DNA from: Terfezia claveryi
Lineage: Eukaryota > Ascomycota > Pezizomycetes > Pezizales > Pezizaceae
Length of the DNA: 64,000 bases
Assembly (NCBI GenBank): GCA_015179025.1
Contig: WHUX01000007.1
Location: 742,044 to 806,043 of the forward strand
Direction of reading: 5' to 3'
Shown here: positions 5,637 through 55,845 of the stretch, one piece after another
How the letters are laid out: each line of letters begins with the position of its first letter
How positions within the stretch are numbered: position 1 is the stretch's first letter
The notes under the pieces: generated by a model
Seen by the model: only the letters and a program-made list of their open reading frames with translations
Databases searched by the model: none
What the model was told of the DNA's origin: nothing
Position numbers and translations under genes: made by a program

Positions 5637-5658
5637 TCACCATGGTTCTAGATCCCTT

Positions 5659-32501: not shown

Positions 32502-32760
32502 ATGGGTTCCCTGGCTCTTTCCTATTTCTCAGGTTCATCTAAGTCAGAGGACTCATCCACAAGGGTCCATTCCTGTGGGTCCTCTGCCTCAGGGGCAGTA
32601 AGAGTGGAGGAAGAGGATATACTAGGTCTTTTATTAATTACCACTTCAAACTTGGGTTTTCTTATAACTGACCTTCCTCTTTCCTCACTCTCTTATTGTT
32701 GCTGTTGGGCCTGGGCCCTAGTAGTGGTAGCAGCAGTTTGGACTGCTGCTGGCTCCTGCT
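32502..32760 (-). pseudogene. G2a linker fragment between copia and hAT
   Basis: The minus strand encodes QQEPAAVQTAATTTRAQAQ and then a hydrophilic stretch (PKFEVVINKRPSI, EWTLVDESSDLDEPEK). It continues the linker of G2a. Joining it to the sequence right of 55556 keeps the reading frame, so one element was split by the hAT insertion. Two stops are present. Confidence 0.7.
32753..32760. repeat. 8-bp target duplication, left of giant hAT
   Basis: CTCCTGCT immediately left of the TIR equals CTCCTGCT at 55549-55556 on the right. Eight-base duplications are the hallmark of hAT transposition. Confidence 0.9.
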
Positions 32761-32779
32761 TAATGTGCGCCATTGGTCG
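32761..32779 (+). repeat. left TIR of giant hAT
   Basis: TAATGTGCGCCATTGGTCG pairs with the inverted right end CAGCGTGCGCCATGGGTCG (55530-55548): 15 of 19 positions agree, and three of the four differences are transitions at the CAGCG tip. CAG at the end is typical of hAT TIRs. Confidence 0.85.
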
Positions 32780-32997
32780 GGTCGAGGCGAGTTTCGCTAG
32801 TTGTCAACCCACTTCGGAAACCGACTCGACCGGCCTGTCCCAGCAGCAACCCGACTCAAACCCGTTGGCCGATTAACCCGTGAAAATCCGGTTACCTGCT
32901 TTTTTTCCAAATACTCGCCAAGGCCACGGGTAATTGCCAAGTAACCTGAACCCCGCCAAGCCATTCCGTTGTTCCCATGTATTTTTGTTCTGTCACC

Positions 32998-33072
32998 GGA
33001 AATTGTTACGGGAAATTGTTACGGGAAATTGTCATGGGAATGTATTACGGGAATGTATTATAGGAAAGTATT
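32998..33072. repeat. GTYAYGGG array, left subterminal
   Basis: A 15-bp unit (GGGAAATTGTTAC) repeats with cores GTTACGGG, GTTACGGG, GTCATGGG and ATTACGGG. It lies about 240 bp inside the left TIR. Confidence 0.8.
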
Positions 33073-33339
33073 ACTATAAGGAACTTGTCATAACCAACCA
33101 CTTTCTCGACTAATAAATAGACCCACATCAACGTAATGATACCATGCTTCCAGAAAACTAAATTAAATACCCTATCATGTATAACTGAATCTGAAAACTG
33201 TATACTATGAACTGCCCAATTTAAGATTAAACCAACTACTCATTCACCCCATTGTAGGCTAACTAAAAAAGATAGAAATCACAATATAGATACACCAGCT
33301 AAGTCCCTATGGAACTAATCCTACTCCCTAAAGTTCCAT

Positions 33340-34062
33340 CTAAATCTGATAGTTCTTCCTGATCCTCTTATACAAGCGATCATTAACTGGTATGGTGATA
33401 ACTGCCAGTTCCTTACCCTTTTGCCTTTTCTTACCATGAGGTGTCGGTGTTGATGGCTCCCTCACAGATTTATTCATATTCCAGGCATGCCGTAAAAGTG
33501 GTGTTGAAATGAGGGCATTGCTTCCTCCAAATAGACTAAATTGGAGTTTATCATTGGAATCTGAGCCTCCGTTCAAGTCTATATCCTCTTCACTATTATT
33601 ATACGCCTTGTTATCCAGATCTTCATCATGAACAGGGATCATTTGGCATAGGAAATTAGAGTCCAGGATGCAAGCTTGAATTATACTATTGGCATTATCT
33701 ATGTCTTCTCCGGTATAAAGATCTAGAAGTTCTATGTCCTCTAAATTATCATTAGAGTCCACTATTAACTGCTTATTCTACGATTTGGCAATCAAGAGAT
33801 CTTGTATCATTTGTCCGCTAAGTCGATTCCTCCGATATGGTATCACATCTCTGGCAGAACTAAAAAGTCTCTCATCAGATACTGACGTAATTGGTATACT
33901 CAGGATGTCACGAGCTATATGTGCAAGGGTCGGAAAGTCAGTGCTATTTGACTTCCACCAGATTAACGGGTTTCCTTGATGAAGTAGTACTGGAGCTGAG
34001 TTCAGATATCACACAACTTCAGTCGTATCCTGATCAGGACGAGAATGTTGAGCCTGCAATCT
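33340..34062 (-). pseudogene. hAT transposase, C-terminal part
   Basis: The hAT dimerisation domain reads on the minus strand: LIWWKSNSTDFPTLAHIARD, then ILSIPITSVSDERLFSSARD and YRRNRLSGQMIQDLLIAKS. An acidic tail of about 140 residues follows (33340-33762), with a basic HGKKRQKGKEL patch. A TGA lies before YLNSAPVLL and a TAG after the dimerisation domain. Both are one transition from a sense codon. The remaining part of the enzyme continues at 43004 beyond the nested G1-D. Confidence 0.9.
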
Positions 34063-34741
34063 TGTAATGAATGGTACTAGACAGTATTCATTTGGTACCG
34101 TTTATACAATCTATATCTGTAGGCATGGACGTTTGTGTATTTCGGTTCTGCTGAGGTAAGACCTCAGAAGGGTAGGGAGATTACTATGTGGGACGTTCCC
34201 GAAGGGAACAGTAATTAACTGGTATAATCTATCTTATATAATTTGTGCTATCTAAGCTATATAATCTTGATCTGATCGGAATATAGGCTTGCTTGCTCTG
34301 AGTGCTTGCTTGGTTGCTTCTTGTCTTTCTGTGGATTCCAGAGGGAATCCAGCGGCCTATTTATACTCGTCTGAGATCTGATGACTAAGGAAATAAATAC
34401 AATAAAGGGTGGCACACCAGAAGGTAGTGCGCTGTACAAAAAAGGTCATGTGGCCATAGTAATGAGTCACACGCCTTAAACAATAGTCATGTGGCCATAG
34501 TAATAAGTCACACGCCTTAAACAGAGGTCACGCGGCCATAATGACGGTGTCTTCATATAGCAAGTGCCATGGAACTTCCCATGGCAAATTCCGCGTGCTA
34601 TGGACGCTTATAAAGCAATAGGAGATGGTAGAAGGCTAGTCCTTCAACTGAGAGGCTTAGTTACATAACATAGTAGTAATATAGGAAATACAAAAGTATA
34701 TAATCAATTATATAAGCAATAAAACAACGTTCTCCATTACA
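34063..34741 (-). repeat. G1-D 3' LTR
   Basis: The 679-bp LTR starts TGTAATGAATGG and ends CTCCATTACA. It has two 41-bp units. The TATA box (CTATTTATACTCG on plus, TATAAATAG on minus) is conserved. It differs from its partner at 42327 mostly by transitions. Confidence 0.93.
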
Positions 34742-35846
34742 CTTCCCCATATAGAAGGATTTCCTATCCTTACTTCTTTCGCTCTGCCATATTGGTTTCC
34801 ATATGTCCTAAGATTTGATGCATTGTTAATATATTAGCATTAATATGAATATTCTTAGTGTTTCCTTGACTCATGATTCTATCTCATTCTTGTTGGATGA
34901 GAGCTCGAGTCTCATCTCTGGTTCGTGGTCCTTGTTTTCCTTTAGTCCTTAGACGTCTCTTGAATGTATCTTCCATACTTCCGATCGTCCAGAAGTCTTA
35001 AAGAATTTCGGTGGTGATATCCTTGGCGTTTACCCAGGAGTCATGTTTAGGTGAGTATCCAAGCCATCTGACCTTATATTGTCTTTCTCCAGTTCGAGGA
35101 GCTGTTCTGAATTCTAATATCTTTTCAACTTTATAACGATCTTCTTGAATTGGTCCTGGTTCCTGAGATTGTCTGTGAGGGAACTGGGTAGGATCGTTTT
35201 TATAGTAGGGTTTAAGTTTGCTAATATGAAAAGTATTATATATGAGGTGGAGGTCAGGTTGACTGGATAGGTCTAGGCTATAGTTATTGCGTTTCCGATT
35301 CCTGGAAATAATGGGAAATGGGCCTAGCCATTTTGGTTTGAGTTTAGGTGAGACGTTCGATAGGTTGATGTTTTCTGAGGAATGCATAACTTGTTGTCCG
35401 ACTGAAAATTTGGCTGTATTGGGTAGTCGTTTGTTCGCTTGAGATGCTTGAGTCTTCTTGGCGTCATATAGGTTTTTAGACGTTACCTCATGACGTTCAT
35501 TTGCGGGTACATATGCATTAATGGGGTATGGAAGTATCGATATGCCAAGATGTGCATTAAATCCAAATAGTGTGGAAAAGAGACTATTCTGTCTAGCGGC
35601 GTTATACCTAGAGTTAAGTTTCAACTGTATCTCTGGTAGTTTCTGTAGCCAATCAAATCCTTCAATTTTACAGGCTCTTGCTACTTGTAGAATTTCTTTG
35701 TTCACAATTTCCGATTGTCCGTCTGCACATGGATGATATGCGGTGTATGGTTCCAACTTGATTCCTTTATTCCTAGCCCAATCTTGAAAGTGCATTGACA
35801 TAAAAAGAGTGTCGTGATCAAAAACAATACAGAAAGGGTATCCCAT
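34742..35846 (-). pseudogene. G1-D integrase core end and chromodomain
   Basis: One frame of 282 residues (34998-35846) covers the integrase from MGYPFCIVFDHDTLF through HPCADGQSEIVNKE, the GPFPIISRNRKRN segment and most of the chromodomain (EFRTAPRTGERQYKVRWLGY). This is the longest uninterrupted integrase-chromodomain stretch in the window. A stop removes the last residues of the chromodomain. Confidence 0.88.
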
Positions 35847-36854
35847 AGTTGGGACTACATGAGTATCAAAGGTAGCAGTACATTGTTCTACTATGAAATT
35901 ATCTGAGACAAGAATAAGAAACTTGAATCCTGATTGTCTATCAACAATCGTCCAAAGTCATGAAATACAAACTACATAATCTTCTTCAACAGGAATATTC
36001 GGGTACAAAATTGAACACTTAGTAAACACAGGTGCTAACTTAAGAAAATCCATCGATATGTCAGTCCATAGCCTACTTGGTACATGTAATGGGGTTACGA
36101 GTCCAAGTGGTGCCTTGTTGGAATACTTTATCCATTGACAAGTATCACAACTTCTGATATAGTCCTTAGTTGGTTCTGCAAAGGACTGGCAATCATATCG
36201 GTCAGTAAGATATTTCATTGTTTTTTCAATGCCACCATGAGCGGTTGCTTCATGTACATCTTTAATAACCAATTCGAGATAGTTCTTACCTTCGATGTTA
36301 AAGGTAGAGGGCAAGACTAGTCTCCATTGTCCTTGTCGGTTCTTGACATACAAAAATCCATCTTTTATTCTATGATCCTTACGGTTCACTAAGGTATCAT
36401 AGTAGTTCTTCCAGATAGGGCATACTCTCATGCACGATTGATATGCGGCTTTTATACCTGTTCCTTGGTCAAGCCAGTGTGTGATGAAGTAGTCCTTGTC
36501 ATCTTCCCATCCGTCGCTGATATGCTTCTCTTCAATGAGCTTGTTGAGGGTCGGTTCGATCCTTGTGTTAAAGTCATTGATGGTGGGTTTCTTCTCCTTG
36601 CATGTGGAAGCATTATGTCTTGAAAACTTACAGAAATCACAACGCTGTCTGGAGGTCTTGGTGTCTTGAATGAAAGAGGGCAAATCTTCGTCAATTGCTA
36701 CTCGCTTTTTTGAACGAGTGGTGACGGCGGCGGTATTGATTGGAATCGCATTACTGCTGCTAGCGGTTGCAGCTGGTTGTTGAGGTGCATTCCATGGTTG
36801 TTGTGGGGCAACAGGAGTATTCATGATCTTCTGTTCCATTTGTCGGTTGGTCAT
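35847..36854 (-). pseudogene. G1-D integrase N-terminus and third zinc knuckle
   Basis: Frame 35958-36854 begins in the Gln/Ala-rich part of the linker, contains the knuckle CDFCKFSRHNASTC and the integrase zinc domain (DVHEATAHGGIEKT, SCDTCQWIKYS), and reaches the first catalytic Asp (TDISMDFL). A frameshift at about 35950 separates it from the rest of the core. Confidence 0.85.
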
Positions 36855-37700
36855 CTGTTCGGTAGGGTTACTGAACTGAATGCTGGGTTGGAGAGTGGGT
36901 TGTGTCGGCTTGTTGGCAATCCATCTTTTTGCCCATTTCCAATTTCCTGGATAGCTTCTTCGCGGCTGAGAGCTTGTAGAGGTGGATAAGCTGGTGTTTG
37001 TTGTACTGGTGCTAGTTCCTTTTGAGGCTCATTTGCAGACTCGGATATGAGATGCGTAATACGAGTCGTAAGGAATTCCTTCTCCTTCTTAAGAACTGAG
37101 GCTGTCAGTCACAGTTTAAACTGCCATGTCCGTGGTGGTTGCAGATTGCACATGTTTCGACGGTAAACATGTGGTTGTTCATGGCGTGGGAGCTCCATAA
37201 ACTAGACAGTAAAAATCATGGCAAAAGGACCAATGCATCCTTTTGTATTGTTGCCAATTGCTATGAGCCAGGTCGATAGCAATTTCTTTCGCTTCTTCAG
37301 GAGCGAGGGTATTTTGTTGTGCGTTTTCAGAAGATGGAGGCCTATATCTTAGTCCAAGAACTGTTAAGGGTTTGTTCTTGTTTATATTGGGTATACGATC
37401 ATACCCGCTGAAAACTTCTTCTGGTATGGTAGATAGAGTCTTATCGTCTGAGGACTCTTCTTCCTTCATCATATCATATTCACTTTCTTCATCTGGGATG
37501 CCATTCGAAATATGGACAGAAGATATAGTATCTAAGTTCTTCGGCTCTTCCACGACATTTGTTGAAGTCGCAGTCGACATGCTTGAAATTAATAGCTCTG
37601 CGAGAAACCATATTGTTCTGAGTAGAGGTTTCTGGTGAGTGGAAAGTTTTTAAAGCGTTGGTAGAGATGTTGCGGTTGTAGGTATGGTTAGGAGGATCGA
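36855..37700 (-). pseudogene. G1-D zinc-knuckle linker
   Basis: Frame 37179-37580 holds the acidic part (EEESSDDKTLS) and RYRPPSSENAQQNTLAPEEA, ending at FCHDFYCLVYG, where Pro-Val-His is changed to Leu-Val-Tyr. The next knuckle region (37100-37180) is in other frames after indels. The layout is as in G1-B. Confidence 0.72.
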
Positions 37701-38200
37701 TGCTGTTGGAAATATAATCGTCCTCGGTGGTAGGAGTGTCCAAGTATTTATGCTTTCTTGATAGAGCGTCTGCTATCAAATTTTCCTTTCCTGCGATATG
37801 CTGTATGTCTGTATCAAATTCCATTAGGTAATCTTGCCATCGCCTCAATTTTTGACTTGCAGGCATTTGAGTATGGAAGGTTACTAACGGTTTGTGGTCG
37901 GTAAGGATAGTGAACTTGTGACCTCTCAATTGTGCTTCAAAAAATTTTAATGAATCAATAATCGCTAATAATTCTTTTTGAAAGGTAGGATAATTGAGTT
38001 GTGCTGGATTAAATTTTCTAGAGTGGAAGCATGATGGTCTGATATACGTCAACGGTCCTTGACCTATCCAAGATCCTAGTCCTACATCACTAGCATCACA
38101 GACTAAATATTTGGGTTCAGTAGATTCATTATTCCAGGGTTTTAAAACATGTGGGGAATTCACGAGTTCCTTGAGTTTTTAAACGCTGCATTATGAGTAT
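37701..38200 (-). pseudogene. G1-D RNase H
   Basis: Frame 37489-38163 starts before YLVCDASDVGLGSWIGQG and includes the FQKELLAIIDSLKFFEAQLR, TILTDHKPL and GKENLIADALSR blocks, so the RNase H itself is intact as a reading frame. Its junction to RT is broken by a frameshift near 38180. Confidence 0.87.
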
Positions 38201-39250
38201 CTGTCCATTCCCATTTCTTTGTTTCTCCTTGCAGTTCTGACAGGGTGCTCGCATACGATGCCAAGTCAGGAATAAATCTGCTGAGATAATTAACGATTCC
38301 AAGAATCCTCTAAGATCCTTTTTCTTGTAGGAGTTGGAAATGTTAATATAGTAGTCCTCTTCTTCGGGTCTACATGTAATCCATCTGATGTCAAAACGTG
38401 TCCTAAGATTTCCAATCTTGGAGTAAAGAACTGGCATTTGCTTTCTTTGAGATAGAATTTCTCATCCTGTAGACGTTGAAGTACTTTCTTCAATAATTCT
38501 ACATGTTCTTCATACGTTTTAGAGAATATAATAATATCATCAATATAGATGATTAAATTTTTATAGACCATGTCCTTAAAAATTTCATGCATAACGCGAA
38601 CCATGGTAGCAGGTGCATTACGATCCCCTTGTTGCATAACTCTACTTCTGAAATATCCCATGTGACATAAAAAGGTAGAGTGTTGCTCAGATTCTTTATT
38701 GTTCCTGATATTAAAAAATCCGTCGGCTAAGTCGAGCTTAGTCCAAATGGGATTCTCCACTACTAGTTCAATTGCTTCATTAATATCTGGCAATGGGTGT
38801 GGTCCGGTTCGACGGCTAAATTGCGGTCTCGACAGTTATTGACATGTCTAGCTTCTTCCGGTTTATCTCGTTTAGGGATAGTGAACATGACTAAGCATTT
38901 GTGTCATTTTCTACTCTATATATGCGACCTGATGCTTCTTTTTGACTAATTTGTCATGGATTTGTTGTCTAAATCGATGTCCTGAGGGTGCCATTTTGGT
39001 ATCCAAGTAGCTCCTGCTTTTGGTTTGATAGAGTGATTAATTTTTCTTAGTGGAGGTAATTCCCGTGGAATTGTCTTGGGAAATAATAAGGGAAACTCCG
39101 TTACAGGGTTGAATTGTTTCTGTACCGTAGAAACAGCTGTCACGAGTTCTCTTTCTGAATCGGTTTCTTCTACGTCACTAATATTTTCCAATTATCCGGT
39201 TCACTATAATCTGTAACTGATTCACAGCTGACCTGAGTATATGCTGATCT
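38201..39250 (-). pseudogene. G1-D reverse transcriptase
   Basis: Frames 38290-38793 and 38946-39191 cover the gypsy RT. The YIDD box is at 38536-38547. Indels near 38810, 38895 and 38945 break the fingers region and another near 38300 breaks the thumb. Confidence 0.87.
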
Positions 39251-39800
39251 TATACTATTCGCTATAGTTCTAGATCCTTTCCATACACTTAGCTGGAATC
39301 GAGGAATATTTTCCGGTTGGATAGTAACTGGTTCCTGATGGGCAGGAATTATTGCTCGCACTTTGCTGAGAGCAGGTTCTCCTAGTATCATGTCCCATCC
39401 AGTCAAATGAGCTACATAGAATGTTCGTTCTTCTACATAACCTATCCAATCAAGTTTGATAGTACAAGCTTTGTCTATCATTCCTTTTGAGCCTTTAATT
39501 GCAGTACTTAATGATTTCTTCTCGATACTTCTAGTTGGTATTTTGTATAGGTGTACAAATTGAGAATTGATTAAGTCCCTCCCTTCGTTTGGAGATCAAT
39601 TAAAGCTAGTGCGGGGTGTTCGTTAGCTTTAACGAATACCTTGCTAAAATCTGGTACCTGTCTTGACAAGGGTCGTTCCTTGATTTTATCCTTGTTGTTT
39701 TTATCCTTGGTGGCTATCGGCATAGCTAAATCTTGTGCGGCTGTACGCATGGGTACCTTATTTTTCGTTTCCTACAGTCTTGTAGGAGTGTCCAGGGTTC
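39251..39800 (-). pseudogene. G1-D protease
   Basis: The C-terminal half (ERTFYVAHLTGWDMILGEPA) is in frame 39170-39481. The active-site region lies at about 39600 in another frame. The nucleocapsid knuckle lies just upstream (about 39780-39830). Confidence 0.75.
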
Positions 39801-41520
39801 CAACACCATAGACATTTCTTGTCTCTAATTAATTGCATCTTCGTCTTCTGATCCAATTTTTTTGTGATGGTGTCCCAATCTGAGTCCTTCCGATTTTCTG
39901 TATTGGGTTTGGTGTTGGGATTGCTACTAGGATTAAATCCTGTTTTTTGTCGTTGATTCTGGTCCCTGCGTGGACCGTGACTTGATTTTCATTCAGGGTG
40001 TTGTCGTCGGGATGTATTTTGTGGTGGTGGGGCAATATCCTTCTTGGAAGCTTCATATGACTCGCTTGATGCACGAGCTGATCATATGACCATTCTTCTT
40101 TAATTAAAGGAATTAATGTAGCTAATATATGGCGCAGGTGATTAAGAAACTTTCTTCTTTTTACTTCCTGCGATATTGATTGTTTGCCATCCTTGTCAAT
40201 CAATTTGATTTGCATTTCAGTAAGCCAGTTGGCAAACTGTTTGATTCCCATGTGACGTCCGTCCTTGTATGGTGTGGCTGTCTCCCATCATTTCCAAAAA
40301 ATGTCCTTACTAGTAGAGGGTATCAGAAAATCCCTTAGCACTAGTATGAAACCAAAGAATGTCACATTCTTTCCTTTTTCTCTTAGGAATTGATTATAAG
40401 TAGTAAGTGCGCTTCCTTCCATTCTGAATCCAACAATTTCCAAAGCTGAAGCGCCTTCCAAATCTATTCTTTTGAGAACAAACCAACGTTGCATTGCTGT
40501 GGCCCAAGAGTCAAAATATTGTGAGTCTTGCCATTTTTTGTCTTCTCCTCTTAATTTTTCTGGTATATCAATCTTTATTCCTTTTAAAGCATTCGTTGCT
40601 TTATGGTTACCCATTGTAACCATTCCTATTGTGATTCCCATTGCTGGTTTCAACTGATTTTCCTCGTTTGGGTTTTCTTTTAAGAGTTTGACTTGCAACT
40701 GACGATGCTTATCAGAGTCCGAGCTATCATCTCTACTATCATCGGGGTCTCGTCCTCCTCCTTATGTTTTCTGCTTCTGTTGGTCTAGTCCTGTATCTAG
40801 ATCATCATCGTCTTCTGGTAATTCTATATCTTCTGGTGGTTGGTCTTTGTAGTCTGGTTCTTTGGCTGACCCAGTCCTCCTTTCTAGTGTCTCAGGTGCT
40901 CGACCTTTGCCTTTCAATTGATCTTTTGGTGTTCTCAGGAACGCTCCTGGAAGTTCTTTGCTAGGATTGAAAAAATCCTCCATAGTATGTGCTGATTCTT
41001 CTAGATGAGTGCTGCTCATCATGAATGCCATTATTTCTTCCCAGTTATTTATTACCCAATTCGGTTTCCTAAAAGTGGTACAACAGGTTTCCTTAATTCT
41101 TTACTTAAAAATGCGTTCATTTCTAAGTCTTCTTCTTTGAATGGGTAAGGTGTTAGCCATAAGTAGTGTTTTGCTACGGCTTCCATTAAGAGTCGAGTAT
41201 CATCAGGATGATACTGTTGGGCATGTCCCATTGAGCGAGTATATTTCAAAATCTCCTCAATTGTTGGAAGATGTCTGTCCCAAAATTCTTCTGGTGTGAG
41301 AGGTAAAGCCATACTAAAATATAGTTTGGTTCTGCTCCACCTGGTTCTCCTAATTCTATATCCATGGGCATATTTATTTCCCCTTCTGTGTTAGGAACTA
41401 TAAATCTGGTCTTTCTGGGAGTTTCTTCTACTAATTTCTTAATATCTTTGGGTAACATAGTTAACCGTCTCGACCTCTTAGTCTTCTTACTAAGTTCAGA
41501 GCTATTATGTCTGATTTCGT
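39801..41520 (-). pseudogene. G1-D gag
   Basis: Five frames (41246-41536, 41052-41312, 40762-41031, 40288-40698, 39829-40251) align end to end with the single 474-residue frame of G1-A, each junction being a short indel. The single copy of the 770-bp segment confirms that the tandem copy in G1-A is derived. Confidence 0.85.
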
Positions 41521-42326: not shown

Positions 42327-43003
42327 TGTAATGAATAGTACTAGACAGTATTCATTCGGTACTGTTTATACAATCTATATCCGTAGGCACGACGTTTGTG
42401 TATTTCGGTTCTGCTGAGGTAAGTCCTCAGAAGAGTAGGGAGATTACTATGTGGGACGTTCCCAAAGGGAACAGTAATTAACTGGTGTAATCTATCTTAT
42501 ATGATTTGTGCTATCTAAGCTATATAACTTGATCTGATCGGAATATAGGCTTGCTTGCTCTGAGTACTTGCTTGGTTGCTTCTTGTCTTTCTGTGGATTC
42601 CAGAGGGAATCCAGTGGCCTATTTATACTCGTCTGAGATCTGATGACTAAGGAAATAAATACAATAAAGGGTGGCACACCAGAAGGTGGTACGCTATACA
42701 AAAAGGGTTATGTGGCCATAGTAATGAGTCACACGCCTTAAACAATGGTCATGTGGCCATAGTAATGAGTCACATGCCTTAAACAGAGGTCACGCAGCCA
42801 TAATGAGGGTGTCTTCATATGGCAAGTGCCATGGAACTTTCCATGGCAAATTCCGTGTGCTATGGACGCTTATAAAGCAATAGGAGGTGGTAGAAGGCTA
42901 GTCCTTCAACCGAGAGGCTTAGTTACATAACATAGTAGTAATATAGGAAATACAAAAGTATATAATCAATTATATAAGTAATGAAACAACGTTCTCCATT
43001 ACA
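42327..43003 (-). repeat. G1-D 5' LTR
   Basis: The 677-bp LTR starts TGTAATGAATAGTAC and ends CTCCATTACA, followed by the target duplication AATCT. Two 41-bp units are present. Confidence 0.93.
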
Positions 43004-45867: not shown

Positions 45868-47047
45868 ATGAACGGAATTCAATACCTTGATGATTCGGTA
45901 GCACAGTCAGATACTGAGTTATCTATCAGTAATACAACAATAGACCTTAATAATAGTACTCAAGCAAGACTCGAAATCCTAGATCAATTGAATATCCACA
46001 ATCCTATTGATATTCAGCAAGCAGCCATACGTTTAGTAAATGCACATTTCGAGCAAGGCACAGAATATAGAGAGATCTCTGAGCTTCTTAGTTTAGTCTG
46101 GATTGGGTGGGATATTTTGATAGTATCTAATTTATCTGACACCCAGGAACCTCACCGATGCCACCCAATCAACTCCCATAATAACTCTCTTTGGAATAAG
46201 ACAAACTTAGATGATTACACCTTATACGATCTTTTATGGATTAGTATGTTTGGTAATTTTTTGATGAGGTATCAGAGTGAACGACCAAACACCAATATGC
46301 TTTCGATATGTTGGGGTATCTGTGACATACCAACACCATGTTCGGTATGTACTTCATAGTATAATGTTTAACAAATCTCAAGACTATCTAATCAATTCTA
46401 ACTAGGTATTAACTGCTTATCGAAGAATCCCTCAAATGGATCCCACATTAGAGGGTATTTACATCCCACATGTATGGTATCCAAATCCTCGAATACATGT
46501 CAATTGTTGTGGAGAACTTATTGAGATAGTTGGATCGCCAAGGTATAACCTATTAATCTACCTGACTAATAGACCTTGAACTAAATAATACAGACCTAGA
46601 GGTATCTGGGAACTCACTACCAATCCAAACTGGCCCTTGCACTGCATGCTACTGTATATAGATCTTACCAACCTTTCTGATTGCAGTGACTTGGAGACTG
46701 TGTCTGAATGTTTGACATGCAATAGAATTGGACATAGGATGGAAGATTGCACTAACCCTTGGCAGTATATGACATATGAAGATATTCCATCACAAAATAC
46801 TCCAAATAATACGATACACAATGACCTGAACTTTGACCAATTACTTGGAGAAGTTAGCCATCATGCAGAAGAACGATCTGGCATCAGTATGCTAGATGGA
46901 AGTACAAGTCCTTGGAATAGTACGCTTGAGGGTATACCCAATATAACTGATAGTATGCTCGAGGATATGACCGAGAGTACTCTCGAGAGTACACTCGAGG
47001 GTACGCCCGAGAGTACACTTAAGGACTGTCAATGGTATCCTTTATGA
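45868..47047 (+). CDS. cargo gene 1: intact two-intron gene, zinc-knuckle protein
   Basis: Splicing two short introns (46345-46405, GTATGT...CTAACTAG; 46543-46593, GTATAA...AATACAG) gives an uninterrupted 355-residue frame: exons of 477, 137 and 454 bp. Near residue 250 is a canonical CX2CX4HX4C knuckle (CLTCNRIGHRMEDC), a nucleic-acid-binding module. The C-terminal ~50 residues are acidic repeats of ESTLEGTP type. The N-terminal half has no family I recognise. It is the only gene in the giant hAT without stops. Start: first ATG of the frame, preceded by CTGCATA. Function unknown; an accessory or regulatory role for the transposon is a guess. Confidence 0.65.
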
Positions 47048-47971
47048 ATCGTTAAATTGGATTGGGATTGGGTATGGACGGCGATAAATCATATACAATA
47101 GATCTATTATTAGTGATTTGTCCTAATAGTACTATACGTTTGCTGCCCTAAGTCTTTATTATTTCTATTCAATAGTTGTTTTGATCTTCTCTTTCTATTG
47201 AATAGTTGTTTTGATCTTCTCTTTTTAATGGATTGTTGTTTCATATTCTCTTTGTTCTCATATTTCTTTGTTCTAGATATAGTGCTCTACTCTATGTTAT
47301 TGCCTAAAGCGGTCTATGAGTGGCTTGTACCAACTAGTGTTTGGATTAGACCATATTAGGTAGTTGCTCTCTACTAGTTAGTTACTCTGCCTGTGCCAAC
47401 CTTGTTAGTCACTCTGCTTGTGCCAACCTTGTTAGTAACTCTGCCTGTCCAACCTTTAAGTAACAGTAGTCTAATTATTGTCTATTACGAGGTCTGATGT
47501 CTGATGTCTGATCGGGACTACTTAATTATCTTCTCTATAAGAGGCTTGTGCCAACCAGACTAGTCATGGCTAGTCCGCTTAAGTCACGGTAGTCTAATTG
47601 CCTCTAATTGTCTATATATTGTGGTCTCAGTTTAGCTTAGTTTGTATCTGTTCGTTAAAATGCATTAGCGCATGTCTGAATTGCTTTGTCTTCACAAATT
47701 GTTAGCCAATTAGAACAAGACATAGACTATTTAGTTTGCTCTATCGACCTTTCTGCATACTAAATCACTAAACCAACCTCTACTTTGCACGGCCATCCTC
47801 TTTCTCACAATCTTACACTATATCACTGGTACCACACTGTTACAAGTATACTGCACTGTCACACACTGTCATGAGTATACTATTACGGGAACAAGTATAC
47901 TTCCACCCAAAGTACTGTGATGTACTATCACGAGTATACTATCACAGGAACAAGTACGCTTCCACCCAAAT
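47048..47971. other. intergenic region with three short tandem repeats
   Basis: A 34-bp unit (TTCTATTGAATAGTTGTTTTGATC...) repeats at 47160-47250, a 27-bp unit (GTTAGTCACTCTGCCTGTGCC...) at about 47375-47455, and a 62-bp block (ACTATCACGAGTATACTATC...) is duplicated at 47870-47970. The last has GTYAYGGG-like cores. No gene was seen. Confidence 0.6.
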
Positions 47972-49148
47972 ATGATATCCAAAGAATCTGGCAGACTCCC
48001 GAAACTCAATAGACCTCTAGGCAACAAGGAAAACCGAGTTCGAGTACCTCGGGAGAGACCGTTCAATCCAGAAGTTGAATTTGGTGGGGGAATTCGCATC
48101 TACGGAATGTCAACAAACCCTAAGATAGTATATAATAGGTCTAGTAGAACTAGTTTGAGAGGTCCGCCTCTAGCACTAGCTTGCCTCAAAGATTCCTTAA
48201 GACAGGAGAAATCTAGAGCACAGCATGGAGGAATTACTACCCAAGAGGCTGCAGATGTTGTAAAACGTCCTATTGGTACATCGTAGAGTAATCTTTCAAT
48301 TACTAAACAAGGAAGGTTTAAGGATATACTCAACAAGTATATGACGATTAGATTATGTCATTGTAATATGTATATCCTAAACCAATGGAAGATATTAGAT
48401 CAAAATACACAATGGAGGCTACTAGATATTGGTCCAAAGTACAATATACCTAGTTTTGACATGACGCGAGAGGAAACTGAGAAGGCATGGCCTGGCCAAA
48501 TGTCTTGGAAAGTTCAAATAGTTAATCCTCCCTACCTTGGTTTTGATTGCAAACAATATATTCCTATGTTCTCAGCTATTTCTGCGACGAACATCACGGC
48601 AATTCATTGGGCAGATGAAACGACAGCAAACCCAATAGATAACTCAGACCTAGCAGAAACAATCTTTGATAGTAGTAGTGACCCATGCATAGAGGAGGAG
48701 CCTGTAAGTTTATACTATATTGAGTAGACCTCTTATCATGCAATGAGTAAGGCTGATGGTTGACTTAGGATACAGATAATATAGAATACCTAGCATACAA
48801 TACTACCGACGATGAGGATAATAATAGTTCAGATCTCAGCTCTGTTCCTGCCAGCACTACGGATGGAGAAATAGCAATGATGTTGAAACTAACAATGAGA
48901 GCACTGATAATGGGAAGGATCATACCCAGGCTTCCAGATTATATCGCTAAACCTTGGATGAGATCTTTGCTAACCCCGACTTAAGAGAAGTTGATAAGGT
49001 ATTAGAAGACTCAAATGATGATGAAGAGGATGAAGATTATGTTGGGATAATATCAAACCAAATCGTTCATCAATATTCTCAAATACTTCGAGAAAGCAAA
49101 CCAAAGGGAACAGCAAAAGGCAAAGAGGATTCATCGGCAAAAGGTTAA
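47972..49148 (+). pseudogene. cargo gene 2: acidic unknown protein, broken
   Basis: Frames 47972-48286 and 48341-48727 are in the same register, split by one TAG at 48284-48286 (a 36-nt in-frame GT-AG stretch around it could be an unusually small intron). A GTAAGT donor at 48702 and an acceptor at about 48770 would join to DTDNIEYLAYNTTDDEDNN. After a one-base shift and a TAA the acidic tail continues in frame 48954-49148 (EDSNDDEEDEDYVG, ending in a Lys/Gly/Ser stretch). The N-terminus is basic (RVRVPRERPFNPEVEFGGG). No recognised domain. It might act with other cargo. Confidence 0.5.
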
Positions 49149-49243
49149 TATTATAGGAGTTGTCACGGGAGTTGTGACGAGAGTTGTCAAGGGAGTTGTC
49201 ATGGGAGGTGTGATGAGAGTTGTCAAGAGAGTTGTCATGGGAG
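49148..49243. repeat. GTYAYGGG array, 15-bp units
   Basis: Six to seven units of GGGAGTTGTCAC-type sequence follow the stop of cargo gene 2. Cores include GTCACGGG, GTCATGGG and changed forms. Confidence 0.8.
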
Positions 49244-49597
49244 TTTATTTTATTTTATTTTCTATCATTACCTCCTTTGAATGATTTAATTATTGTATGA
49301 TCTATTTATATCTTTGATTTATGTATCCTAGTCACCTCTGTTTATTCTTTTGTCATATGTCCTTTTCATTGGATTCCTTTATTACTCTTTGAGGGTTATG
49401 TATGGTAGTTGGTTAAGGGTTATGTATAGTAGTTAGATTATTAGTATAATGCTGAATGCAACTTGCCACCTTTGTTTACAGTACAAGAATATATAGCGTT
49501 TGTTGTTTGCTATTTAGTGGTAATAAAATCCAATTGGAAAAAGATTCCTTCCATTATCTAAACCTAAGTCCATATCTACAATACAGATATTCACGAC
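49244..49597. other. intergenic, upstream of H3-like locus
   Basis: AT-rich sequence with a repeated GGTTATGTATRGTAGTTRG motif at 49395-49440. It may hold a promoter or 5' untranslated part of the next locus. Nothing else was recognised. Confidence 0.35.
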
Positions 49598-50300
49598 ATG
49601 CCAGCAAGCAGACTGGTAGGAAAACAATAGTCGGGGCCCAGACTTCTTCCAGAAGAAGTCCAAGGCCGGGTCCAAGGCCGAATCCAAGGCCAAGTCCAAG
49701 ACCCGGGTACCACCAATAAGTGGTGCACCACTAAAAACTGGTGTTAGGTGACCTAAAGCCCGGAAAGGGCAGGCTAATAGTATGTTTACCTTTCATGAAT
49801 ATTATATTTCCATCTAACAATGCCATATAGGAAACTTCCGTTCCCAGGTTAAAAAATACCAAATGGAAACAGGATTTTTGATCCCTCACCTGCCTTTTAG
49901 CTGACTATGCCATGAATTGTACAGAATACTACCGCCAATAATGTACAAAATATACCAGCAATAGAAGCAGTAATGTAGATATCTCTAGATGCAGTCCTTA
50001 TCTTACAAACGGAGGCAGAAAACCAAGTTATAAAATATCTTTCTAGTATGTTATGGTCTAGGCTCTAAAATTGGTTCCCAGGATTATTAAACATGTTATA
50101 GGTGCCAATTATCTTGCTATACATAGGAAGCGCTCCACCCTAAAAATCCAAGACTTCAAACTCTAGAGCGCATCCTTGCTGTGGAGTGCTACAATAGGGC
50201 ATCGTACCATACTCAGACAGGTGGGATGCCTTATAACTATAGAGATGTGCCAAATTGGGAAAGTCAGCTCCGAAAGGGCAGGAAGAAAAACAAGAACTAG
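49598..50300 (+). pseudogene. cargo gene 3: divergent histone H3 / CENP-A-like
   Basis: In order on one strand: ASKQTGRKTIVGAQTSSRR beside the ATG (compare the H3 tail's K-Q-T-A-R-K-S), an expanded Arg-Pro repeat, TGVRxPKARKG, RKLPF (the H3 alpha-N landmark), LDAVLILQTEAENQVIKYLS (alpha2, where H3 has ALQEA), an intron (50046-50101, GTATGT...TATAG) and ANYLAIHRKRSTLKIQDFKL (H3 loop 2 to alpha3; CENP-A proteins often have IHRKR). The frame restores S-S-A-N-Y across the splice. A 40-residue basic extension follows. A one-base loss after ATG, a TGA, a TAG and a shift at 50163 make it a pseudogene. H3-variant identity is inferred from several ordered motifs; CENP-A versus H3 is less certain. Confidence 0.6.
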
Positions 50301-50687
50301 CAGCCCAGGTACCAGCAGCTCCAGTAGTGTAAATTGGGTCTTTGATATTACGTATGCTTGTGTAGGATGTTGTTGGGTTAAGTAGGATGTTGATAAGTAG
50401 AAGTATATAGCAAGTGAAGACATTACATATCTACTTGTGAGAGTCAATATGCCATGAGAAAAGAATCCCGTCTAGAATGTATATCGGTTTCATTAGTCTA
50501 GTTTCATACTGGTTTCATTGTGCTTAGATACGGTATACTAGACACAGAGACTGCACAGAGAAGCAACTCATAGAGAAGGAACCCACGAAGAAGTACACAA
50601 AACAAACATAAAATTAAATACATGGATAATGCAAAATACACGGACATATAAAATACACATGCAAAATGCACAAATGCATAGACAGAA
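50301..50687. other. non-coding gap between two cargo loci
   Basis: The gap separates the convergent 3' ends of the plus-strand H3-like and the minus-strand oxygenase locus. Short A-rich repeats of ATACACAT type occur. No gene was found. Confidence 0.4.
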
Positions 50688-51800
50688 CTACTGAACAATA
50701 TTTTTTGCCTTTTTCTTACTTGGTTGACCTCGTCCAGTCGGCTTTTTCTTAGGCTCCAGCTGCTGACCCCCTTTTCTTTTCTTTGACGCAGAAGGATACC
50801 ATTTAATCTAATCCATGATACTCTTGTGTGTAAATAGATTAACACTATTCCTAACACTCGAGTAATCTTAGTATTCCCATGACAGATTAAAGAACCATAA
50901 ATAATAAAGCATCCCTCAGGTCGAAGCTCCAAAATATATTTGGCTTACCATAATACTAAGTTACCTCTATTATAATCACCATATGGTACAACTGTATTAG
51001 TGGCAGAACGAACATCCTTCCAATCTTGATGATGTTGTAAAATACTGTCTAGTGTCATTTGTTGGTTAATGGTGGCTCCAGCCCAAGGATAGCATAATAA
51101 TTGAAGGGGGTTGGGAAGTGTAATGTTAGTAAGCTTATTATATGCTTCAGGAAAAATAAGCTTCAAACAATCTCCAAGATACCGCCATAGGATTTGTTCC
51201 TTTAATCCAAGTAATCGAGGCAGGTTATTGAGTTAAATAATCTTTACTATGAAAAATATCTAAACTACTATCAGCTAAGTAGTATAGTGTCAGATCGGAA
51301 ATTCGCCTCGGGATCTATTCTTCGTTGGTGATGTAATCTATTTCAGGTAAAAAGGCATCATTTTCAACTAAGCCTCCAACCAAGAAGTCTGGAATTCTGA
51401 GCCGGTAAGCTAAGAGACAGCATTTTTATCTTTGATCTCCAAATGCTCAGAACCTGATTGAAATCGTCAGAAAGATGAAAGTTGAGAATTCTTCATTAGG
51501 GTAAAGAATATTGACCTTAATTCCTTATAATTAGCTCTGAATTATAAGAATTATAAGGTATACGAACCTCTTTTATTCTTTAAAGACCATTTCAATACAG
51601 AAATACTTGTAGGAGCTTCCCAAAAGATTCGGGTTGTTCTCTCTTTTTCCCAAGATTGTAGAAGGCGTTTGACATGTTAGCGTAGTCCTTTTGCCCTTGC
51701 AGATGATCTTTATTAAATGCGCCACTGGCAACCAAATGGGCTAAACGGACTTCAAATGCATGCGCTGAAAGTAAGCCAGTTGTAGTGTAGTAGTGGTGGC
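50688..51800 (-). pseudogene. cargo gene 4: TET/JBP-like 2-oxoglutarate dioxygenase
   Basis: The C-terminal 2OG-Fe(II) fold is readable: HHQDWKDVRSATNTVVPYGD gives the HxD iron ligands (about 51025-51035), then YNRGNLVLW, a stop (TGG TAA), LELRPEG, SLICHGNTKI (distal His), then in the next frame VRNSVNLFTHKSIMD with the Arg expected to bind 2-oxoglutarate. A Lys-rich tail (KKRKGGQQLEPKKKPTGRG) ends at 50688. Upstream, GQKDYANMSNAFYNLGKK and FLVGGLVENDAF are open in pieces. TET/JBP enzymes oxidise 5-methylcytosine or thymine in DNA. Stops and one frameshift inactivate it. Its start is not defined; other 2OG oxygenases remain possible. Confidence 0.58.
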
Positions 51801-52121
51801 AGAGGCAAGGTAGTGATGGAGTTTAGTGGCTGCAGAGGTATCAGCAGAGGTTGTAGTAGTCATAGTGGCTGCAGGAAGAGCTGGATAGCTGGTGGTAGAG
51901 TTGGAGCTAGTAGAGTTGGAGCTGGTGGTAGAGTTGGTTAGAGCTGGTGGTAGAGTTGGAGCCGGATAGAGTTGGAGCCAGTGATAGAGTAGAAGCTGGT
52001 AGTAAAGCTGGCTGGAGAAAAGCAGCTGGCTGGTGGGGGGGCTGTGAGCGTGAGAGCTCAAAGGAGTCGGAAGATATAAAGACAAAAAGTAAAAATGCTG
52101 CACCTTTATCCTAGTACAGAA
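51801..52121. repeat. GTAGAGTTGGAGCT tandem repeat and flanks
   Basis: Between 51880 and 51985 the 15-bp unit GGTAGAGTTGGAGCT repeats irregularly five or six times. The minus strand frame over it is Ser/Thr/Asn-rich and may have been an N-terminal part of the oxygenase, or just repeat. Not resolved. Confidence 0.5.
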
Positions 52122-52350
52122 GCCAAGAACCCACGATTTTTAGAGACAATTTTTAGATACATGTTTTTAGAGATTAGTTATGATGAACAGGGTTAAATAA
52201 GCAAGGATAAGTTTTGTTTTTTGAACCATCCACATCAGCGTAGCCGAAGGATAAATTCGAATTAGCCTTTACGGGGTACTGGGAATCGAACACAGGCCCT
52301 GATAATGCTAGTAGAATGGGTCAGGCCCTACCAACAAAACAAGAAACTCA
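52122..52350 (-). mobile_element. tRNA-derived SINE-like element, copy 1
   Basis: On the minus strand the head is tRNA-like: an A-box-like TTTTGTTGGTAGGGC (52328-52342) and a near-perfect B box TGTTCGATTCC (52281-52291). A body with TGAACCATCCACATC (plus strand) and a tail AAGCCAAGAACCCACG follow. Copy 2 at 54516-54740 shares head, body and tail. Confidence 0.65.
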
Positions 52351-52429
52351 GAGGTATACAAAATAAAATTGTACTGGCTTATCTACCCAATTTTCGCTAC
52401 TGTAACAAAAACAAAACTGTCACGGACAA

Positions 52430-52925
52430 GTATTGTCACGAGCGACAAGTATTGTCATAGGTGACAAGTATTGTCACGGGTGACAAGCAAGTATTGTCAC
52501 GGGCGACAAGGAAGTTTGTCATGGGTGACAAGTTTTGTCATAAGTGACAAGTTTTTGTCAAGGGTGACAAGTAAGTTTTGTCACAGGTGATAAGTAAGTT
52601 TTGTCATGGGCGACAAGTTTTGTCACGGGCAACAAGTTTTGTCACGGGCAACAAGTTTTATTATGGGCAACAAGTTTTATTAAGGGCGACAAGTAAGTTT
52701 TGTCACGAGCGACAAGTTTTGTCACGGGCGACAAGTTTTGTTACAGGCGATAAGTTTTGTCATGGGCGACAAGTTTTGTTACGGGCGACAAGTTTTGTCA
52801 TGGGCGACAAGTTTTATCACGGGTGATAAGGTTTTATTACTTTTGTATGAAGGCTTATGCCAACCAGACCACACTTTTGTCATGGGCCACAACTTTTGTC
52901 ATAGGCGACAAGTTTTATGACTGGA
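52430..52925. repeat. largest GTYAYGGG minisatellite
   Basis: About 26 units, mostly 18 bp, of the form GACAAGTTTTGTCACGGGC. The spacer GACAAG makes many cores part of GTCAC..GTGAC-like near-palindromes. Open frames over it are only consequences of an 18-bp unit. Confidence 0.92.
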
Positions 52926-53024
52926 AAGAGCCAGTCTAAGTGTCTTTTTATAAGTAAATCTATTAGTATAGAAGGTATATATACCCGTATCACCTTTGTT
53001 GGGCACTAATTTTCCATAAATATC

Positions 53025-53115
53025 TAACTAGTCCGTAACAAGTCAACCAGTCTGTAATAAGTCCGTAACAAGTCAACTAGTTGGTGACAAGTCAACTAGT
53101 TCTTCAACAAGTCTG
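53025..53115. repeat. GTAACAAGTCAACTAGT array
   Basis: Five units of about 16 bp (CCGTAACAAGTCAACTAGT and GGTGACAAGTC forms). The core is related to the neighbouring 18-bp array (GTGACAAG). Confidence 0.8.
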
Positions 53116-53828
53116 TGACAAGACATTTCCAACTGTATATGAAACTCCCAATTATATAGAAAAGGTTAGTACAAGCTACAACTACATATAAGGACCAGCC
53201 TTATTAAGATATGTTGACCCTTAGGTATTATTATCTCGGCTCCACAAGGGTTAACTTTAGCAATAGAGATATCAAGGGAATGAGCTGGAGGGTAGAAGCA
53301 GCTAGATAGTGGCCAGAGCGCTACTAGATAAAATCTGCATGTCCACCTCTACAACTTCAACCACAATTCACTCCTCATCCTCATCCTGATCCTTATCCTC
53401 ATCTGGATCTTCATCTATATCTTGATCTTCATCTTCATACATATCCTCAATATCTCACATACAACATAGTACTATACATACTACTTTGACGAGAGAAATT
53501 CAGGCACAAAGTATGCCTTCAAAGTATGATCTTCTCATACTTAGTTACTTGCACAATTTCATTGTTTGGCTATTATCCATGTAATCTTGGTATCTGCGAT
53601 TCTGGGCTTAATGGGCTTGCCCAATTGACCTATTGCACTGGATAGATTTTGATCGTATTTTCATTACTTCCTAAGGACTGAGCTTTTAGAAGCTACAGGC
53701 AGCTGCCTTATAGCTGTAGTGGTGGAAAATTGTGAAGTCTTCAGTAGACAGAAAAAAGGCATTAATACAGTTGTGGTGGGCACATTACTTAACAACTAGA
53801 CTTTGTTATAGGCTTGCAGCTAATCCTT
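53116..53828. other. AT-rich region with CATCCT hexamer repeat
   Basis: A run of TCATCC/TATCCT/TCTTCA hexamers occupies 53370-53455. Otherwise no gene, LTR or TIR was recognised. Confidence 0.5.
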
Positions 53829-54187
53829 TATTATAGTGAATATAGAACTCGATCTCAGCGCCGCAGGCAAATAGAAGTTCCTGCAACTCCTAGTGAAGAA
53901 GATACTAACGTGGAAAGAAGAGATGACAATAGAGATGATTCGGAGGAAGCAGGTAGCGAGCAGCTAGGAAACAAGGAGAATAAGAACCCAGCTATATATA
54001 CACAGTGCAATTTTCTCAATTTATTCAACATCCCATAATCAGTGACCCCCCCCCCCCTTCTAGTTGCCCCATTCGTACCCCATTGCGTGATGTTGAGATT
54101 GCTATTCTCCAAAGGACTAAGCTAGCTAAACAGCGGCTCCGCCAGCAACGAAAGGCTCGTGATCAGAAACAGCGAGAAAGACAGTAG
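53829..54187 (+). pseudogene. short basic/acidic frame, unrecognised
   Basis: Frame 53814-54038 has a run of Arg, Glu and Asp (RTRSQRRRQIEVPATPSEED, then DDNRDDSEEAGSEQ). After the poly-C tract (54046-54057) frame 54005-54187 is again highly basic (LAKQRLRQQRKARDQKQRER). The charge pattern suggests parts of one nuclear or coiled-coil protein joined by a splice or broken by a frameshift. No family recognised; it may be another cargo relic or chance. Confidence 0.3.
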
Positions 54188-54515
54188 GAAATATAGAGGG
54201 CATCACAGAATAGAGAGTCATCAAATGTTGGCGCAATGGAAGGGCTTCTTTTTGGGCCTGGCTGTTCAAATATTCATATTGCCTATATTGGTCCTATAAC
54301 TATGAATTTCAAGAAATAGTTCATAATATTGGTATCTAATTTACATCCATTCCTTTTTCTATTTGTGAGTTATAGTAATAGTGCATTATGAGCAATCTGT
54401 AATAGTGCATCATAACCAATCTGTAATAGAATAGCCTAGAAACTAATTAATAGAGATTGCAAAAAAGAGTCGGCTTGATACCACCACATGGTTGCCAAAC
54501 CCATTGTGCCAAAAA

Positions 54516-54740
54516 GCCAAGAACCCAAATTTTATTAAAGCCAAAAACCCACAGCAAAGATCCCACATTTTAAAGCCAAGAAGTCATATTGAACCATCCA
54601 TATCCAGCGATACTAGAGGAAAATTCTTTTTAACCCTTTATGGAGCTACTGGGAAATGAACACAGGTAGTCAACCAAATACAGGCTCTAATCATGCGGGT
54701 AGAATAGGCTAGGCACTACCAATAAAACCAGAAACCTATA
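54516..54740 (-). mobile_element. tRNA-derived SINE-like element, copy 2
   Basis: It matches copy 1: the A-box-like TTTTATTGGTAGTGCC and a decayed B box (GTTCATTTCCC, 54651-54661), with a 20-bp insertion between head and B box. The body shares TTGAACCATCCATATC and the tail GCCAAGAACCC. Two copies with the same boundaries support a dispersed family. Confidence 0.6.
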
Positions 54741-54956
54741 CTTAAGGGCTACTAAATTGTATTGTACTTGAATTATATACTCTAATATACTTTCACTGCT
54801 TATATGTTTTGCCTCTTATATGGGCTTATATTATAGCACCATATGTCATAGACTCTTTTATCACAGATTATTACCTATATCACAAGTGAAGCAGTTGAAG
54901 TCTAATTCGAGAGTCGAACAGAAAAGTGTCTGAGTCTCGATTAGGAATCTCTTTAT
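54741..54956. other. intergenic within hAT
   Basis: AT-rich sequence without a recognised gene or repeat. Confidence 0.35.
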
Positions 54957-55032
54957 CTGGGTTATATCATGGGTTATGTCACAGGTTATGTTATGGGTTA
55001 TGTCATGAGTTATGTCATAGGTTATCACCTAC
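54957..55032. repeat. GTYAYGGG array, 15-bp units
   Basis: Five units of GGGTTATGTCAT-type sequence (cores ATCATGGG, GTCACAGG, GTTATGGG, GTCATGAG, GTCATAGG). Confidence 0.8.
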
Positions 55033-55529
55033 GATGTAGATGATATTATGTAGACATTACAGGTAAGGATAAGCATATATTTGGGCGATTATAGTTTCTA
55101 TTCTTTACATAAACATCTTGTATTATAAGCCTTGGTAATACAGACTCTACCTTTTGGCCCATAGCCATACCTATAGCCATAGCCATTGTTCTCGCATGCT
55201 CTTTGGAATTGCATCTATAGTTACAGTCTTAGCTATCGACCTCTACCATTACACTATAAAGTAATACCTACTTTCATAGCTTATATATATATATAGAAGG
55301 AAGGCATAAAACCCGTGACAAAGAAAACCCCACCAACATAGACCCGTGACAAGATCAATTATAGGAAATTCGGGTTCTTGGCAATTACCCGTCATCTTGG
55401 CGATTACTTATTATTAGGCGAAGTGGGTCGGGTTGGGTAGGGACCTCACATAACCCGTAGTGGATTGGGTTGAGGCCAGGGAAACTCACCCGGCGGGGCG
55501 GGTTTATTTGGGTTGGGTTGGGTTGAAAT
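55033..55529 (+). other. right subterminal region of giant hAT
   Basis: It contains two inverted cores (CCCGTGAC at 55310-55350), the stretch TTCTTGGCAATTACCCG that is also present near the left end (about 32925-32945, minus strand), and G-rich TTGGGTTGGGTTGGG runs (55495-55525). The shared left-right subterminal sequence supports the TIR assignment. Confidence 0.65.
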
Positions 55530-55548
55530 CGACCCATGGCGCACGCTG
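55530..55548 (-). repeat. right TIR of giant hAT
   Basis: Reading inward on the minus strand: CAGCGTGCGCCATGGGTCG. The outer CAG and the 8-bp duplication CTCCTGCT (55549-55556) fit the hAT superfamily. Confidence 0.87.
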
Positions 55549-55845
55549 CTCCTGCTGGAGCTATCTGAGCCTGAAATTTCTTTGTGGGGTGTTAGATTCA
55601 TCAGGTTCAGAGTCATCCTCAACTGTAGCTTTGTACCTTTCAGCCTCAAAGATTGTATTTAGGCCTTCCCTGTTATACCAGGTAGGCCTAATGCCATCAA
55701 CCTCCTACACAGGTCTTTGTGGGAGGTTGGTGGTAGTGATCTGGAGAGGAGGTAGTCTCCTTCTCCTTTAGATAGTGTTGAGAGATTGTCTCCCAAAGAT
55801 TGGTAGAGACACTAGTCTCCCAGTGGCTTCTCTAATCCTGAGCTG
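55549..55845 (-). pseudogene. G2a linker fragment right of hAT
   Basis: On the minus strand the linker continues from RNase H: REATGRLVSLPIFGRQSLNT, later FEAERYKATVEDDSEPDESN. It ends in RLRxLQQE, which runs in frame into the fragment at 32760 when the transposon is removed. Confidence 0.7.

What the first reader, a model, noticed from the sequence alone, without database searches (positions are those of the whole stretch)
32753..55556. A 22.8-kb hAT-type transposon carrying a set of chromatin- and DNA-related cargo genes
Two distant short sequences turn out to be ends of one element. They show identical 8-bp duplications CTCCTGCT, inverted TIRs with a hAT-like CAG tip, shared subterminal sequence (TTGGCAATTACCCG), and removal of the whole block joins two G2a linker fragments in frame (LQQE to PAAVQ). 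Inside are a hAT transposase, an intact zinc-knuckle gene, an acidic unknown gene, an H3/CENP-A-like histone and a TET/JBP-like oxygenase. Known fungal giant cargo elements (Starships) use a tyrosine recombinase, and fungal TET/JBP genes have been linked to KDZ transposons. A hAT of this size with such cargo is not something I know of.
Basis: partly seen in the sequence, partly recalled or inferred. Interest (0 to 1): 0.93.

Follow-up and report, generated by a model that had tools for sequence, protein, structure and literature searches.

The report
Large fungal transposon carrying histone gene
A fungal 'jumping gene' of the hAT type, about 13.8 kb long, carries its own histone-like gene and a DNA-demethylase-like gene, and relatives in the same genome carry the histone gene too, which suggests a transposon that brings its own tools for handling the packaging of DNA.

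Summary
The ends are real. CTCCTGCT flanks inverted tips, and a related repeat without the insert holds CTCCTGCT once. The 22.8 kb is a composite: an LTR retrotransposon (34063-43003) sits inside the hAT transposase gene, leaving an element of about 13.84 kb. A complete copy on C572 has another 8-bp duplication (ATCCTGGG) and the same gene order.

The tips recur genome-wide (222 sites against 48 for the control pattern). Three further elements (12.6-14.4 kb) predicted from them have perfect 8-bp duplications. These three and a 12.6-kb element on C21 hold hAT transposase, an unknown gene and an H3-like histone, with no TET/JBP hit inside. The H3-like exon looks under purifying selection (omega 0.12-0.26 in 11 informative pairs of stop-free copies). 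TET/JBP-like sequence (weak match) belongs to the window's subfamily and is missing from its 54% relative on C143.

hATs with H3-like genes are published from Dothideomycetes, and TET-carrying hATs (7-bp duplications) from rusts. New here are both in one element, the size and gene set, and the selection. Chromatin-level anti-silencing is the likeliest role (inferred).

The parts
32753..32760 (.). target-site duplication, left (CTCCTGCT)
55549..55556 (.). target-site duplication, right (CTCCTGCT)
32761..34062 (.). left piece of the hAT element with left tip TAATGTGCGCCATTGG
   Evidence: colinear with C27, C90 and C572 copies
43004..55548 (.). right piece of the hAT element, right tip reads CAGCGTGCGCCATGGG inwards
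   Evidence: colinear with C27, C90 and C572 copies
34063..43003 (-). nested LTR retrotransposon, not part of the element (LTRs 34063-34741 and 42327-43003; duplication AATCT 34058-34062 / 43004-43008)
   Evidence: absent from the C27, C90 and C572 copies at this place; integrase/chromo domain ORF
43253..45024 (-). hAT transposase, N-terminal and middle exons (broken frames; weak BED finger at 44677-45024)
   Evidence: matches a 290-aa open frame in the C27 copy
33343..34008 (-). hAT transposase, C-terminal part with dimerisation domain (33781-34008), cut off by the nested LTR element
   Evidence: Dimer_Tnp_hAT 1.3e-20
45850..47044 (+). accessory gene with a CCHC zinc knuckle (two open ORFs 45850-46356 and 46589-47044)
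   Evidence: (zf-CCHC 0.031, below cut-off)
47921..49145 (+). unknown gene (FDPEVEFGGG..GTSTNP region, acidic tail)
   Evidence: 38% identity over 108 aa between the C27 copy and the C21 gene; found at window place C667:790096
49600..50200 (+). H3-like histone gene, approximate span, broken frame in the window
50507..51232 (-). TET/JBP-like oxygenase gene pieces (HxD in 50948-51232), approximate span
   Evidence: weak
53793..54184 (+). short gene with basic C-terminal part
   Evidence: homologous to a C21 gene (C27 copy against C21)

Best explanation
This is one copy, inserted in a Ty3/gypsy-type repeat and later split by an LTR retrotransposon, of a family of large cut-and-paste hAT transposons. 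The family belongs to a bigger clade in this fungus whose members of about 12.6-14.4 kb share tips YAGTGTGCGCCACRGG, 8-bp duplications, a hAT transposase, an unknown gene and an H3-like histone. I propose that the transposase mobilises the unit, that the histone (with its unknown partner) sets a permissive nucleosome state on or near the element or its transposition complex, and that in this subfamily a TET/JBP-like enzyme was added to oxidise methylcytosine and counter methylation and RIP-like silencing. Shown: ends, duplications, empty site, gene order, recurrence, selection on the H3-like exon. Inferred: all protein functions and the anti-silencing role.
For: Ends and duplications. Empty site. 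Same cargo order at independent sites W (window) and A (C572). Tips 222 against 48 control matches. H3-like linked to hAT: of 33 non-host PF00125 hits, 17 lie within 15 kb of a listed transposase hit and 19 have the unknown gene 1.5-3.5 kb upstream on the same strand; of 7 hits taken as host histones, 0 and 0. Histone identity: Pfam 2.2e-11 and PDB H3 3.4e-11 over residues 1-150 for the C21 protein (my splice). Omega 0.12-0.26 in 11 pairs with dS 0.8-1.4. TET-like and H3-like about 1.1 kb apart at 6 loci (C667, C27, C90, C572, C245, C746). Silencing pressure on the family: 843 transitions to 76 transversions among four copies, at CpG and CpA.
Against: No expression, binding or activity data. 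The six TET-carrying loci all carry broken frames or stops in at least one of the genes searched, so no working TET-carrying copy was seen, and the RIP-like decay shows that any protection failed. TET/JBP match is below Pfam's cut-off, had no PDB sequence hit, and its fold prediction failed (pLDDT 53.9). C90 and C27 copies lack matching duplications. Published work reads H3-like genes in hATs as captured host genes.
Confidence: 0.5

Rival explanations
1. The histone and TET-like genes are passive passengers: host genes captured by chance (transduplication) and copied along, with no role in transposition.
For: This is how PMC3538342 and PMC6710886 explain H3-like genes in other hATs. The window family's copies are decayed.
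Against: Omega 0.12-0.26 over 11 informative pairs between three diverged groups; H3-like gene in the window's family, C143, and the C21-, C355- and C512/C45-type groups; introns at the same two places in the C21 and window families, not at the host H3 exon edges seen (splice inferred). The copies tested were chosen stop-free, which leans towards low omega.
Confidence: 0.3
2. The cargo is used by the host (for example a centromere or heterochromatin function) and transposition is a side issue.
For: The C21 histone core scores slightly higher against the host CENP-A-type protein (138, 37 identities) than against host H3 (119, 35 identities), and both it and CENP-A have a longer loop 1 than H3.
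Against: Many dispersed copies, many with stops, in transposon units; host keeps its own H3 and CENP-A-type genes.
Confidence: 0.08
3. The window block is a chance pile of separate insertions, not one unit.
For: It does contain a nested LTR element; two other copies have mismatched ends.
Against: Colinear copies without the LTR element on C27, C90 and C572, and a complete C572 copy with its own 8-bp duplication.
Confidence: 0.02

Closest known systems
hAT with H3L gene in Pyrenophora tritici-repentis (PMC3538342; passages and part 1 of section 20 read)
   Same: hAT transposase, an unknown central ORF and an H3-like gene between TIRs; a short derivative form also exists
   Different: 5.6 kb against 12.6-14.4 kb; H3L copies nearly identical in one species; no TET; read as transduplication. 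Whether the genes are orthologous was not tested.
hAT with H3-like sequences in Pseudocercospora, Cercospora, Sphaerulina (PMC6710886; abstract, passages, sections 6 and 7, part of Discussion read)
   Same: hAT, 8-bp duplications, H3-like gene, RIP decay
   Different: about 9.5 kb, all extra copies inactivated, H3 captured as an intronless transcript or retrocopy; no other domains identified there; no TET in the text (search for 'TET' in the paper: 0)
TET+ hAT7 of Puccinia (PMC12730594; abstract, sections 3.1, start of 3.2, 3.3, part of Discussion, legends read)
   Same: hAT element that encodes a TET/JBP dioxygenase
   Different: 7-bp duplications against 8; rust fungi; no H3-like gene mentioned in the passages found by 'histone'. 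In Ascomycota that paper reports only Helitron and IS3EU with TET/JBP.
Starship giant elements (PMC12134995 and PMC11623301, seen in a search listing only)
   Same: large fungal element with cargo
   Different: listing gives a tyrosine recombinase as their basis; here hAT transposase, TIRs and 8-bp duplications

Membership tests
hAT superfamily | 8-bp target-site duplication | tested here: met
   window, C572, C773, C54, C419 8 of 8; C21 7 of 8; C90 and C27 not matching
hAT superfamily | short terminal inverted repeats with YAG-type tips | tested here: met
   TAGTGTGCGCC / CAGTGTGCGCC; window left tip reads TAATG
hAT superfamily | transposase with C-terminal dimerisation domain | tested here: met
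   PF05699 1.3e-20 in the window, 8.6e-21 in C21
hAT superfamily | N-terminal BED zinc finger | tested here: inconclusive
   zf-BED 0.035, 14.6 bits, cut-off 20.6
hAT superfamily | DDE catalytic residues | not tested
   no structure or catalytic alignment made
hAT7 with TET (Puccinia) | 7-bp target-site duplication | tested here: not met
   8-bp duplications
histone H3 family | H3 tail and histone fold | tested here: met
   spliced C21 protein: PF00125 2.2e-11 over cut-off, PDB H3 3.4e-11 over residues 1-150; longer loop 1
histone H3 family | assembles into nucleosomes | not testable with these tools
   -
TET/JBP dioxygenases | Tet_JBP domain above Pfam's cut-off | tested here: not met
   22.0 bits against 34.9 in the C27 ORF, 12.7 in the window exon; the frame is truncated
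TET/JBP dioxygenases | HxD and distal His of the active site | tested here: inconclusive
   HQD and a CHG histidine are readable in the C27 ORF; assignment by eye, motif recalled
H3-carrying hATs of Dothideomycetes | common ancestry of transposase and H3-like gene | not tested
Starships | tyrosine-recombinase captain | tested here: inconclusive
   no such Pfam match among the ORFs scanned; no dedicated search made

The most novel reading that the evidence does not exclude
A clade of large hAT transposons carries its own H3/CENP-A-type histone as a working, selected part of the transposition machinery rather than a captured passenger. One subfamily stacked a TET/JBP-like DNA demethylase on top, making a mobile chromatin-editing kit. 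The H3-like hATs known from Dothideomycetes would then be relics of the same ancient lineage.
Probability: 0.35. Interest if true: 0.85.

Novelty: new variant of a known kind. Interest (0 to 1): 0.62.

Why it matters
If the histone is functional, a transposon encodes a nucleosome component of its own, and a defined fungal system would allow testing whether mobile elements defeat silencing by changing the nucleosome itself. It would also recast published 'histone capture' by hATs from accident to a conserved gene, and the TET-plus and TET-minus relatives in one genome give a natural comparison for what a transposon-borne demethylase does.

Tried and rejected
Rejected: 22.8 kb as the element's size (nested LTR element). 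Rejected as independent insertions: the C27, C90 and C572 copies share the site-A left flank (C27 against C90: 5 kb at 91.9%; C572's 105 bp 100% to C27), so they count as one site; C90 and C27 look like exchange products between copies or haplotypes. Site B (TCAATGAG) is seen only as halves on two contigs (C27 right end, C85 left end).

Led nowhere: AlphaFold of the TET ORF (pLDDT 53.9); PDB search of the same ORF, 0 hits; protein search with the C21 histone, none at E <= 0.001 among 40 candidates; viral contigs; Rfam over 32700-55600, 0 matches; COX3, DUF6533 and 5.8S searches to name the host, 0 matches each (for DUF6533 the tool says its controls were silent too, so it shows nothing). C143: right end not recognised, left end only a guess. 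Papers: 'transposon-encoded histone' 0 papers, another term set 0, 'histone H3 + hAT + transduplication + fungi' since 2019 gave 2 papers; listings were scanned.
Full report
Ends. CTCCTGCT flanks tips that are inverted to each other at 32761 and 55548. Searching the own genome (72.56 Mb, 794 contigs, unnamed) with the left end gave 13 matches and with the right end 14. On C572 both ends face each other with the duplication ATCCTGGG. C27:31628-32199 is the window's target without the insert, with CTCCTGCT once. The copies on C90 and C27 have unlike 8-mers at their two ends: C90 pairs the site-A left flank with the window's right flank, which continues to the window's end at 93-100% identity per 500 bases, and C27 pairs site A with TCAATGAG, which is also the left flank of the C85 end. 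I read these as exchange between copies or haplotypes; mis-assembly is possible.

Size. Window bases 34063-43003 are absent from the C27, C90 and C572 copies at this place. They are bounded by LTR-like repeats and a 5-bp duplication AATCT, and encode retrotransposon proteins. They interrupt the transposase gene between its middle exons and its dimerisation domain. The element is therefore 1,302 + 12,545 bases, less the 5 duplicated ones: 13,842. The other copies measure 13,896 (C90) and about 13,640 (C572); C27 spans 20,439 with a further insert.

Genes. Reading from the left end: hAT transposase (minus), an accessory gene with a zinc knuckle (plus), an unknown gene with an acidic part (plus), an H3-like histone (plus), a TET/JBP-like gene (minus) and a short gene with a basic end (plus). 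The order is the same in C27, C90 and C572 by DNA colinearity. TET-like and H3-like sequences lie about 1.1 kb apart at six loci: C667, C27, C90, C572, C245 and C746. Copies of the right piece are 93.9-96.7% identical over ungapped columns, and their differences are 843 transitions against 76 transversions, concentrated at CpG (0.485 of sites) and CpA (0.287) against CpC (0.078) and CpT (0.046): a RIP-like pattern that explains the many stops.

A wider clade. PF00125 gave 40 own-genome matches. I took 7 as host histones; two of these were read as H3 and a CENP-A-type protein, the rest by their scores and frames. Of the other 33, 17 lie within 15 kb of a listed transposase match, 13 lie on contigs with no listed match, and 3 are further away. 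Nineteen have the unknown gene 1.5-3.5 kb upstream on the same strand; C512 would make twenty, but its nearest copy of that gene is another one. The 7 host loci score 0 on both counts. Lists were collapsed by hand from 137 transposase and 131 unknown-gene matches, and those searches are capped. The element on C21 (47354-59927, 12,574 bases, duplication 7 of 8) has open frames for transposase, accessory gene, short basic gene, unknown gene and histone; their homology to the window family's genes is weak but clear. The tip pattern YAGTGTGCGCCACRGG with up to 2 mismatches matches 222 times against 48 for the reversed control. Only 100 places were listed. From them I predicted C773:772295-784890, C54:54961-67804 and C419:4756-19167; all three have 8 of 8 duplications, and each holds transposase, unknown-gene and histone hits. 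TET/JBP had 18 loci, none inside these three or the C21 element. The 54% relative on C143 is colinear for transposase, accessory, unknown and H3-like genes but lacks the stretch with TET.

The histone. The C21 protein, spliced by me, begins MVRTKQ like H3, matches H3 from residue 1 to 150 (3.4e-11), passes Pfam's histone cut-off and has a loop 1 about 14 residues longer than H3. Against the host, it scores 119 with H3 and 138 with the CENP-A-type protein, so neither label is secure. I fetched the exon of 12 of the 33 loci, chosen for open frames, and added C21 and C27. Eleven pairs have dS between 0.8 and 1.4, with omega 0.12-0.26. Close pairs range from 0 to 0.60, with the decaying C215 at the top; pairs with C27 are saturated (0.29-0.55 where defined). 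The pairs are not independent.

Host. The host H3 reads [46 protein letters not shown]. From memory this is the filamentous-ascomycete form, and CpA-type decay fits; the host is otherwise unnamed. Relatives of the transposase in public data are metagenomic: 14 and 22 proteins, the only species name being Agrocybe pediades at 30%.

Known work. hATs with an H3-like gene: PMC3538342 (5.6 kb, Pyrenophora) and PMC6710886 (about 9.5 kb, 8-bp duplications, intronless, RIP-inactivated). TET-carrying hATs: PMC12730594, twenty families in six Puccinia species with 7-bp duplications; in Ascomycota only Helitron and IS3EU carry TET/JBP there. None of the texts seen combines both. Both papers on H3 read it as transduplication of a host gene. 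Here diverged groups keep the gene at low omega, and the two introns inferred in the C21 and window families are not at the host H3's exon edges seen, which favours a long-resident gene.

Mechanism. Cut-and-paste by the hAT transposase is well supported by anatomy. The rest is inference: a histone under selection in a DNA transposon most plausibly serves the element's own chromatin, and the TET-like enzyme in one subfamily would work on methylcytosine, as PMC12730594 proposes for other transposons. Against it: no working TET-carrying copy was seen and RIP-like decay went ahead.

Noticed in passing
window 34063-43003: Nested LTR retrotransposon inside the hAT transposase gene; relatives of it lie elsewhere in the window (about 1268-8714 and 11482-14467).
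   Followed up: partly
own genome, e.g. C31:117069-119841, C190:402575-405238, C198:10102-12858, C346:375136-377848: Facing pairs of the same tips only about 2.7 kb apart: likely non-autonomous relatives; their ends were not read.
   Followed up: no
C209, C701, C271, C42, C21:132001, C282, C68, C44, C523, C243, C83, C534: TET/JBP-like exons at 12 loci outside the six copies of the window family, several in open frames; which transposons carry them is unknown.
   Followed up: no
window 52383-55548 against C90: The right half of the element is 95-100% identical per 500 bases to C90 while the left half is 84-97%: exchange, recent duplication or haplotypes.
   Followed up: partly
window 52428-52920: Internally repetitive stretch that matches itself in many registers.
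   Followed up: no
C27:21598-27920: About 6.3 kb extra insert with repetitive sequence in the C27 copy.
   Followed up: no
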